This document shows, one piece after another, positions 19,150-21,994 of a stretch of 32,908 bases of DNA. The translations under genes were made by a program, and so were the position numbers. Location of the stretch: positions 1 through 32,908 of the forward strand of contig CAIYJV010000414.1 in NCBI GenBank assembly GCA_903926605.1. Direction: 5' to 3'. Numbering within the stretch: the stretch's first letter is position 1; every line of letters starts with the position of its first letter. Below the pieces are notes generated by a model that ran no database searches, was not told the origin of the DNA, and was given only the letters and a program-made list of their open reading frames with translations. The DNA comes from an uncultured Bacteroidota bacterium (lineage in GTDB: Bacteria; Bacteroidota; Bacteroidia; Chitinophagales; Chitinophagaceae).

Positions 19150-19196
19150 CAGGCGTTGCAAACTGGCATATTTGCTCAAACACCACTGCCGTGATG

Positions 19197-19839
19197 GAAC
19201 ACTAGCGCTAGTGGATGTCTGCATACTTAAAAAAATACCAGCGGAACACTGAAAGTTTTAAGTCCAATGGCCACCAGTGGGACTACATTTTGCCGACAGA
19301 AGCAGAGCCGATCAGCCCATGATGGCGCATGTGTTTTCGCCAAAGAGAACTCTTGATGAAGCCGGGGAAAATTATCGCGCCGAGCCTTCCCCAATCGTCC
19401 AATGGTTAACCATAAGCGGCGGAAATACCCGTCGCCACAGCGCCTTATAGGACCGTACGCCGTTCGCGCAGAGCTACCCCCTGCGCACGCGGAGCAATTG
19501 CGCAGGGGCCGCCTTTCTTTTGTTTCTTTTATTTGGCGGAGCAAAGAAAAAAAAGGTGCATTTGAAATCCTGCTTTTGGGGGGATTTGAATTCTTCACTT
19601 GCTCAACTTCGGATCAAGGAACGCCTCGGAGACCTGCCAGCCTGTAGGCAAGAGGAGCGTTAATCATCTTAGTCTACATACTGATCGTCAGCTATTGAAC
19701 GAGAAGTTGGTGGGGGAGTTGGGGTGGAGCGATTCTGCCAAGTATGTGCGCTGATTATTATTAGAACGGGAATTCAATTTACGCCAATCCGGAGATTGGC
19801 CTCCGTTAGGACGTAGTCAGAGGCTACGCCCAACTGGGG
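19197..19839. repeat. Long direct repeat, copy A
   Basis: About 643 bp that recur almost unchanged, and in the same orientation, at 20239-20890. The left end contains the palindrome CACTAGCGCTAGTG (19200-19213). The middle contains CCCCTGCGC...GCGCAGGGG (9-bp arms, 12-nt loop). The right end contains a tight hairpin GCCAATC-CGGA-GATTGGC followed by CGTAG-N7-CTACG. A minus-strand frame of about 123 codons is open inside it, but its differences from copy B are mostly amino-acid-changing, so it does not look like a gene under selection. The two ends are not inverted repeats of each other and no transposase is present. I recall similar elements scattered in other Bacteroidota genomes; this is memory, not a search result. 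Confidence 0.88.
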
Positions 19840-19914
19840 ACTTTGGAATCAGGCAATAACATTCTCTTTACCCTTCAAATGCTCTATTGCGTAATTTGGA
19901 CTAAGAGGCGCTAC

Positions 19915-19943
19915 TTTGCAAAACCGGCGAAACTATATCTTTG
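19915..19943 (+). promoter_or_regulatory. Promoter of the VF530-type gene
   Basis: TTTG at 19915-19918, a 17-nt spacer and TATCTTTG at 19936-19943 match the Bacteroidota consensus. The -7 element ends only 4 nt before the ATG at 19948, so the transcript is predicted to be leaderless or nearly so. Confidence 0.7.
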
Positions 19944-19947
19944 CACA

Positions 19948-20169
19948 ATGACTGGTGCCCAACCCAACAATCCACTGCACGGCATAACACTGGAGGCTAT
20001 ATTGAACCATCTTGTGAACCAATATGGCTGGGAGTATATGTGCGACCGCGTGCGTATCAATTGTTTTTACGAGAACCCCAGTATCAGTTCGAGCCTTAAA
20101 TTCCTGCGCAAAACCCCTTGGGCCCGCAAAAAAGTAGAAGATCTATACCTGGAAGCAATAGGTTTGTAG
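19948..20169 (+). CDS. VF530-type (DUF2132) small DNA-binding-fold protein
   Basis: A 73-aa protein matching the VF530/DUF2132 family from end to end: [19 protein letters not shown] near the N-terminus, [15 protein letters not shown] in the middle, and [25 protein letters not shown] near the C-terminus. Family members are helical and proposed to bind DNA; no function is established. The frame is open upstream to 19843, but the ATG at 19948 lies right behind a consensus promoter and begins exactly where family proteins begin. The gene is complete and intact although it sits between two 650-bp direct repeats, and so forms the unique part of a repeat-bounded unit of about 1.04 kb. Confidence 0.88.
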
Positions 20170-20238
20170 TGGGAATCGGAATCCTGAGCCATTTGATTTC
20201 GGAAAAAAATAACTTCGCATTTTCCGCCGTTGTTGGCA

Positions 20239-20890
20239 GAACACTTGCGCTAGTTGATGTTTGCGTACTTAAAAAATACCAGCGGGAAGCTGAAAGTTTT
20301 TAGGACCAAGTGCGGCCCTTGGACCAGTGAGACTACATTTTGCCGACAGAAGCAGAGCCGATCAGCCCATGATGGCGCATGTGTTTTCGCCAAAGAGAAC
20401 TCTTGATGACGCCGGGGAAAATTATCGCGCCGAGCCTTCCCCAATCGTCCAATGGCTAGCCATAAGCGGCGGAAATACCCGTCGCCACAGCGCCTTATAG
20501 GACCGTACGCCGTTCGCGCAGAGCTACCCCCTGCGCACGCGGAGCAATTGCGCCGGGGCCGCCTTTCTTTTGTTTCTTTTATTTGGCGGAGCAAAGAAAA
20601 GAAAGGTGCATTTGAAAACCTGCTTTTTTGGGGATTTGAATTCTTCACTTGCTCAATTTCGGATCAAGGAACGCCTTCGGAGACCTGCCTGCCAGAAGGC
20701 AAGAGGAGCGTTAATTAGCATAGTCTACATACTGATGGTCAGCTATTGAACGAGAAGTTGGTGGGGGAGTTGGGGTGGAGCGATTCTGCAAAGTATGTGC
20801 GCTGATTATTATTAGAACGGGAATTCAATTTACGCCAATCTGGAGATTGGCCTCCGTTAGGACGTAGTCAGAGGCTACGCCCAACTGGGG
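20239..20890. repeat. Long direct repeat, copy B
   Basis: The second copy of the element at 19197-19839, same orientation, about 652 bp, differing by scattered substitutions and a few short indels concentrated near the left end (around 20300-20330). The left palindrome is degraded (CACTTGCGCTAGTTG) and one base pair of the central stem is lost (GCGCCGGGG). The right-end hairpin keeps its full stem, the only change (C to T) being in the loop. The minus-strand frame here is open for 132 codons and is not considered a gene. A group II intron 3' end begins 75 nt after this copy. Confidence 0.88.
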
Positions 20891-20965
20891 GTTAAAGCAA
20901 ATAAAGAAAGCAAAACCAAACTTATTTGTGGATTGGGGGTCATTGTAGCAAGGTTTGAATAATAA

Positions 20966-21039
20966 GAGCCGTATGAAGGGAGACTTTCAAGTACGGTTCT
21001 GTGAGAGGCTTGGGGTGAAATTCCTCTTGCCTACTCGAC
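20966..21039 (+). mobile_element. Group II intron 3' fragment: domains V and VI
   Basis: Positions 20966-20999 fold as a textbook 34-nt group II domain V. The 8-bp lower stem is GAGCCGTA / TACGGTTC with the catalytic AGC at its base; a 2-nt bulge (AG) lies on the 3' side; the 6-bp upper stem is TGAAGG / CTTTCA, capped by the GNRA tetraloop GAGA. Positions 21000-21039 form domain VI: GAG...GGC stem, internal pairing, GCCT, a bulged A at 21033 (presumed branch point), CTC, and the typical intron end CGAC. The predicted 3' splice site follows 21039. No domain I-IV and no reverse transcriptase/maturase are found upstream: repeat copy B ends 75 nt before domain V. The element is therefore a truncated remnant. 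It lies 46 nt downstream (on the genome) of the DUF4249 stop codon. Confidence 0.88.
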
Positions 21040-21085
21040 AAAGTTAGTTGCACTGGATTTGCAATCCCTGGTTCAGTTGCACCCC

Positions 21086-21994
21086 TTACGGCACCACCAG
21101 CGTGGTTTCCGCACTGCTGTAGCCAGCCCAAACACCAATGGCACCACCCTTGATGTTGGTCTGCACATTGATGGGTGAAGAAAACGGATTGCCAATAGAT
21201 TGCTGCGCAAACGCTTCGGTGTTCCAGAATGTGTACACACCCTTGTCTATCTGGCACCAGTTGAGCGTTACCGTATCGCCGGGGAAAAAATAGCGCACGG
21301 TGTCGCGCTGCACATTGGTGCTGTCCTGATACCCGGCAAACATTGCGATATTGGAAATCCTGATTCCGTTCACGGCATCATCACTGTACAACCCAACGGG
21401 GTAAAACTGACCGCGGTTTTTTCTGGTAAAGCTGCGCACAAAGTTGCCCGGGGTGTCCGGGTCGGTATAGTTAGCAAACAGTTGGTAGGCGCTGTCGGGT
21501 GTGCGAATACTCTTGAACTCTGGTGCGGCAAACCACATACTGTCCACACCCTTGGGGTAGGGTATACGCGTAGATGCAGTGTATGTTGCTCCGTTTACTT
21601 TAATGGTAAGATCATAGGTTTTTCCAGCCACGCCCAGCATGATGCCCGGACCATGAGATGTATCTACGCTGTATACATAATACTTGTTGCTGACCCCGGT
21701 ATCAAAGCTGTATTCCCGCAGGGTGGCTACCTGTGAACCGTCAGATACGGTTATCACAGCATTGTGCACAAAGCTGTTTTGCAGCGAAGTAAGGTCAATG
21801 GTGGAGAAAAAGCTAATGGTAGAAGTCAATACCACATAGGGTGGTTGGCCGGTTTGTACCTGGCCCTGCACCACAACTACCGACGAGGTGCTACCCAGGT
21901 TGATATGTACTTCTTTCTGGCAGGAAGCCAGGAACATAACGCCGACCAGTATCGCCATCATAATCCGGCTGGCATTGTTTACATTAAACCACAT
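21086..21994 (-). CDS. DUF4249-family lipoprotein
   Basis: A 302-aa outer-envelope lipoprotein of the Bacteroidota-specific DUF4249 family; members often accompany TonB-dependent receptors, and their function is not known. The signal ends in the lipobox MFLASC with Cys25, followed by QKEVHINLG. The conserved N-terminal beta segment (VVVVQGQVQTGQPPYVVLTSTISFFS) and SFVHNAVITVSDGSQ are characteristic, followed by TYDLTIKVNGATYTASTRIPYPKGVDSMWF and a Fn/transthyretin-like C-terminal part. An internal start at M12 or M13 would give a more usual short leader. No TonB receptor gene is adjacent, which is unusual for the family. The gene seems complete although the intron remnant and repeats begin just beyond its 3' end. 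Confidence 0.86.
   Translation of the reverse strand: MWFNVNNASRIMMAILVGVMFLASCQKEVHINLGSTSSVVVVQGQVQTGQPPYVVLTSTISFFSTIDLTSLQNSFVHNAVITVSDGSQVATLREYSFDTGVSNKYYVYSVDTSHGPGIMLGVAGKTYDLTIKVNGATYTASTRIPYPKGVDSMWFAAPEFKSIRTPDSAYQLFANYTDPDTPGNFVRSFTRKNRGQFYPVGLYSDDAVNGIRISNIAMFAGYQDSTNVQRDTVRYFFPGDTVTLNWCQIDKGVYTFWNTEAFAQQSIGNPFSSPINVQTNIKGGAIGVWAGYSSAETTLVVP

What the first reader, a model, noticed from the sequence alone, without database searches (positions are those of the whole stretch)
20966..21039. Isolated group II intron 3' end (domains V-VI) beside a 650-bp repeat
The 34-nt domain V is complete: AGC catalytic triad, 2-nt bulge, GNRA tetraloop, perfect stems. Domain VI has a bulged A and the end CGAC. 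Yet domains I-IV and the maturase are absent, because repeat copy B ends 75 nt upstream. A well-kept domain V without a recent body suggests either a fresh truncation or a split intron whose 5' part lies elsewhere and acts in trans.
Basis: partly seen in the sequence, partly recalled or inferred. Interest (0 to 1): 0.72.

Follow-up and report, generated by a model that had tools for sequence, protein, structure and literature searches.

The report
Truncated remnant of a group II intron
This is the leftover 3' end of a common bacterial mobile intron, cut off inside its own protein gene at the edge of another repeated element; there is no sign of a missing half elsewhere in the genome, so it is almost certainly inert and ordinary.

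Summary
Domains V-VI of a group II intron lie at 20966-21039 (+): RF00029, 67.2 bits, E 2.5e-11; the fold is far better than shuffles (z -4.8). But the 75 nt between the repeat and domain V are not blank. They encode the last 18 codons and stop of the intron's maturase (LKQIKKAKPNLFVDWGSL*, 20892-20948), in the frame and spacing of intact relatives. The intron was cut inside its maturase gene, at the end of repeat copy B, a REP-type palindromic end shared by more than a dozen loci in this genome. No other intron piece was found in the 97%-complete assembly: no second domain V, no reverse transcriptase or maturase, no domain I above cut-off with RF01999, a model that recognises 14 of 14 relatives. 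The '3' exon' runs antisense into a DUF4249 gene. The same family holds other 5'-truncated, 3'-retaining remnants, one in a single-contig genome. Verdict: an ordinary, inert 5'-truncated intron remnant; a trans-acting split intron is not supported.

The parts
20892..20948 (+). last 18 codons and TAG stop of the group II intron maturase (LKQIKKAKPNLFVDWGSL*), cut at its 5' side
   Evidence: best match in the six-frame window to a profile of 19 relatives' maturase C-termini, E 8.9e-5; aligned at the C-terminus in A1; stop 15 nt before the domain V match, as in relatives (5-21 nt); DNA of 20893-21039 aligns at 78% to the 3' end of the intact intron L101
20949..20965 (+). 3' strand of domain IV leading into domain V
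   Evidence: alignment A2 with intact introns
20966..20999 (+). domain V: AGC triad 20967-20969, GAGA loop 20980-20983, 2-nt bulge 20990-20991
   Evidence: RF00029, 67.2 bits; fold z -4.8
21002..21037 (+). domain VI with bulged branch-point A at 21033
21038..21039 (+). intron 3' end (AC); junction with the 3' flank at 21039/21040
   Evidence: relatives conserved to CGAY and divergent beyond
20226..20890 (+). repeat copy B, whose right end is the truncation point
   Evidence: 93.4% identical to copy A 19188-19839
20831..20890 (+). REP-type palindromic end of the repeat (CGTAGTC-AGA-GGCTACG...AACTGGGG)
   Evidence: the same end at more than a dozen places in the genome, nearly all stopping at this base; flanks a RAYT gene on contig C292
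19188..19839 (+). repeat copy A (same right end, different right flank)

Best explanation
A roughly 2-kb mobile group II intron of the common bacterial type (reverse transcriptase/maturase of about 415 aa without an endonuclease domain) once sat between the repeat region and the DUF4249 gene. Its first ~1.8 kb (domains I-III and all but 18 codons of the maturase) was lost in a rearrangement whose breakpoint is the REP-type end of repeat copy B. What remains (20892-21039) is the maturase tail, the end of domain IV, and domains V and VI. Without domain I (exon recognition) and without a maturase it cannot splice or move, and it persists as neutral debris. Shown: remnant identity, breakpoint, and absence of other intron parts in the assembly. 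Inferred: that the REP-ended element caused the loss (I give this about 0.6), and that the remnant has no function.
For: RF00029 67.2 bits. Maturase C-terminus just upstream in the right frame and spacing. Intact intron L101 (1976 nt, two copies in G186 with different flanks) aligns to 20893-21039. The breakpoint lies 0-2 nt from the end shared by many REP-type copies, and a REP-associated transposase NF047646 (97.8 bits) is flanked by this REP type on C292. Only one domain V in the genome; RVT_1, the maturase profile and GIIM all without a real hit; RF01999 best 15.2 bits against a cut-off of 36, whereas it finds 14 of 14 relatives. Comparable 5'-truncated remnants in the family: L131 (single-contig genome, 107-aa maturase tail, no domain I) and L133. 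[quoted passage not shown]
Against: The assembly is a draft in 426 contigs, so an intact copy or a 5' half on an unbinned contig cannot be excluded; repeats can also cause misjoins, so the junction at 20890/20891 could be chimeric. The literature on RmInt1 describes loss of the 3' end as the usual course (PMC4496777, PMC5894124), the opposite of what is seen here.
Confidence: 0.93

Rival explanations
1. The 5' truncation arose during retrohoming: cDNA synthesis starts at the 3' exon and stopped early, leaving a 3'-only copy, and the REP element is a later or neighbouring insertion. (A rival only for the route of truncation, not for what the remnant is.)
For: Truncation from the 5' side with an intact 3' end is what incomplete cDNA synthesis would give (inference from the known mechanism); other 5'-truncated copies exist in the family.
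Against: The breakpoint coincides with the defined end of a dispersed REP-type element, which a random stop would not explain unless the element inserted just there afterwards.
Confidence: 0.2
2. Split intron: the 5' part lies elsewhere and the 21039/21040 site is trans-spliced.
For: Domains V and VI are well kept; natural trans-splicing introns usually break in domain IV (PMC4424553), and the break here falls in the domain IV region.
Against: No domain I, reverse transcriptase or maturase anywhere in the assembly; no + strand gene as 3' exon, the next gene being antisense (21086-21994); the break is inside the maturase reading frame at the end of a mobile repeat. PMC4424553 says none had been reported in bacteria by 2015.
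Confidence: 0.01
3. Assembly artefact: the contig was misjoined at the REP repeat, and the intron elsewhere is intact but unbinned.
For: Draft assembly in 426 contigs; 568 nt of copies A and B are 96% identical; intron ends often fall at contig ends in related drafts.
Against: The remnant was found only once in the assembly and lies well inside a 32.9-kb contig; no contig carries the rest of an intron.
Confidence: 0.06

Closest known systems
Intact mobile group II intron L101/L102 (G186, same bacterial family; RF01999 domain I, RF00029 domain V, TIGR04416 maturase)
   Same: domain V-VI 92% identical; maturase C-terminus and its spacing to domain V; same CGAC end
   Different: L101 keeps 5' GTGTG, domains I-IV and a full maturase; the window keeps only the last 148 nt
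5'-truncated group II intron remnants L131 (G058) and L133 (G066)
   Same: domain V-VI plus a maturase C-terminal fragment, no domain I found upstream
   Different: longer maturase remnants (107-aa frame in L131, 42-aa frame in L133); no REP-ended repeat was looked for at their breakpoints
FRE652 RmInt1-like fragment of Sinorhizobium (PMC5894124)
   Same: a persistent group II intron fragment without mobility
   Different: FRE652 keeps domains I-III and loses the 3' end; the window is the reverse

Membership tests
Group II intron (as a sequence-derived remnant) | domain V with catalytic triad, bulge and GNRA loop | tested here: met
   RF00029 67.2 bits over gathering 40; fold
Group II intron (as a sequence-derived remnant) | domain VI with bulged A and AY 3' end | tested here: met
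   bulged A 21033, end AC
Complete group II intron | domains I-III and 5' GUGYG | tested here: not met
   no RF01999 match above cut-off in window or genome; no DNA similarity to the body of L101
Complete group II intron | intron-encoded reverse transcriptase/maturase | tested here: not met
   only the last 18 codons remain; none in the genome
Trans-splicing (split) group II intron | the complementary 5' part encoded elsewhere | tested here: not met
   RF01999 best 15.2 bits, below cut-off 36, in the 97%-complete assembly; unbinned contigs not covered
Trans-splicing (split) group II intron | a 3' exon that yields a product after splicing | tested here: not met
   next gene is antisense, DUF4249 at 21086-21994
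Trans-splicing (split) group II intron | spliced RNA | not testable with these tools
   no RNA data

The most novel reading that the evidence does not exclude
A bacterial split group II intron whose 5' half lies on an unassembled contig and acts in trans on the 21039/21040 site.
Probability: 0.01. Interest if true: 0.85.

Novelty: already known. Interest (0 to 1): 0.1.

Why it matters
It matters little by itself: intron remnants are common in bacteria. It is a clean example of a 3'-retaining remnant whose breakpoint coincides with the end of a REP-type element, and it shows that a well-kept domain V alone is no evidence of function.

Tried and rejected
Scans for an exact match to the domain V found only three contigs of one Saprospiraceae draft and one Ignavibacteria draft (L127-L130) and nothing in viral contigs. 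The exact empty site could not be reconstructed: congeners G001-G003 lack the intron, but the DNA downstream of their DUF4249 gene is unrelated (thioredoxin reductase in G001). A raw tblastn of maturases against the window at a loose E-value was too noisy to use alone, so a C-terminal profile was used instead. The whole-intron DNA search is only partly sensitive for domain I (about 11 of 28 relatives found), so RF01999 was used as the stronger test. The maturase-profile search of the own genome carried no positive control of its own; RVT_1, GIIM and RF01999 did. The paper by Dai and Zimmerly (2002) is not held. No promoter-like site was found in 20150-21150, and the single terminator-like site is within chance.

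Full report
Observation. Rfam's group II intron model matches 20964-21039 (+) over its full length, 67.2 bits, E 2.5e-11 for the window. The strand folds at -33.6 kcal/mol against -19.6 +/- 2.9 for shuffles into domain V (20966-20999: AGC triad, GAGA loop, 2-nt bulge) and domain VI (21002-21037, bulged A 21033), followed by AC at 21038-21039. In relatives the sequence is conserved to CGAY and diverges beyond, so the 3' boundary at 21039/21040 is sound. The neighbouring repeat exists as described: 19188-19839 and 20226-20890, 93.4% identity, the last 568 nt at 96%.

They read LKQIKKAKPNLFVDWGSL* in one frame (20892-20948). In most relatives with an intact intron the maturase ends P-x-LF-x-HW... 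with its stop 5-21 nt before domain V; here the stop lies 15 nt before. A profile of 19 such C-termini, built without the window, ranks this frame first among 1363 six-frame stretches of the window, E 8.9e-5. The DNA of 20893-21039 aligns over its whole length (78%) with the 3' end of the intact intron L101. L101 and L102 are two copies of one intron in G186 with different flanks, which fixes its length at 1976 nt. So the window holds the last ~148 nt of a roughly 2-kb intron, cut within the maturase gene.

Breakpoint. Copies A and B of the repeat share their right end...CGTAGTCAGAGGCTACGCCCAACTGGGG, and differ from the next base on. More than a dozen loci of the genome carry a similar palindromic end and also diverge at or within a base or two of that point. 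On contig C292 two such ends flank a gene that scores 97.8 bits (cut-off 80) for REP-associated tyrosine transposase. The intron remnant begins within 2 nt of this end. It is a reasonable inference, not shown, that insertion of, or recombination at, this REP-ended element removed the intron's 5' part. Incomplete cDNA synthesis during retrohoming is a rival route to the same outcome.

Is the rest of the intron elsewhere? In the window's own assembly (3.97 Mb, 426 contigs, 97.2% complete) there is one RF00029 match only, no RVT_1, no match to a profile of nine maturases plus the window fragment, GIIM at best E 0.14, below cut-off, and no similarity to the body of L101 above chance. The strongest test is RF01999 (domain I region): it finds the 5' part of all 14 relatives tried, at 44-109 bits, but nothing over 15.2 bits in this genome. 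Congeners have no copy. Unbinned contigs remain a gap in this argument.

Could it splice? Domain I carries the exon-binding sites (established knowledge) and is missing. The first gene on the 3' side, DUF4249 (21086-21994), is on the opposite strand, and no credible + strand gene follows at once. A review states that trans-splicing group II introns had not been reported in bacteria (PMC4424553, 2015). Nothing here supports one.

How ordinary is it? Among 149 genomes of the family, 23 have a domain V over cut-off and 16 a D1D4-2 match over cut-off; the two sets overlap only in part, in both directions, which fits frequent fragmentation, although domain I types other than RF01999 also contribute. 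Two remnants were looked at directly: L131, in a single-contig genome, has domain V-VI and a 107-aa maturase tail but no domain I in the 4.7 kb upstream; L133 has domain V-VI and a 42-aa frame ending in the maturase C-terminus, again without domain I. PMC4424553 states that the majority of bacterial intron copies are truncated or inactivated. Reports on RmInt1 stress loss of the 3' end (PMC4496777, PMC5894124), so the polarity here is the less described one, but it is not unique in this family.

Age. The remnant is not obviously fresh: the near-invariant H of the HW motif is D here and the tail is shortened, and the repeat copies have diverged by about 7%. A preserved domain V of 34 nt is weak evidence for selection.

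Verdict. An ordinary, inert, 5'-truncated group II intron remnant.

Noticed in passing
window 19188-19839 and 20226-20890: Direct repeats ending in a REP-type palindrome flank a small VF530-domain gene (PF09905, within 19843-20169), an arrangement that looks like a duplicated or mobilised unit; parts of the same repeat occur on several other contigs of the genome.
   Followed up: partly
L010:317-865 (-), contig C292 of the window's genome: A REP-associated tyrosine transposase (NF047646, 97.8 bits) between two inverted copies of this REP type; the survey PMC3733652 listed GTAG REPs in Proteobacteria, Cyanobacteria, Chloroflexi and the PVC group but not in Bacteroidetes (that this genome is Bacteroidota is my inference from its genes).
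   Followed up: partly
L066, L103, L105, L112: RF01999 domain I and RF00029 domain V only about 400-500 nt apart with no maturase between: apparently ORF-less group II introns in relatives of the window's organism.
   Followed up: no
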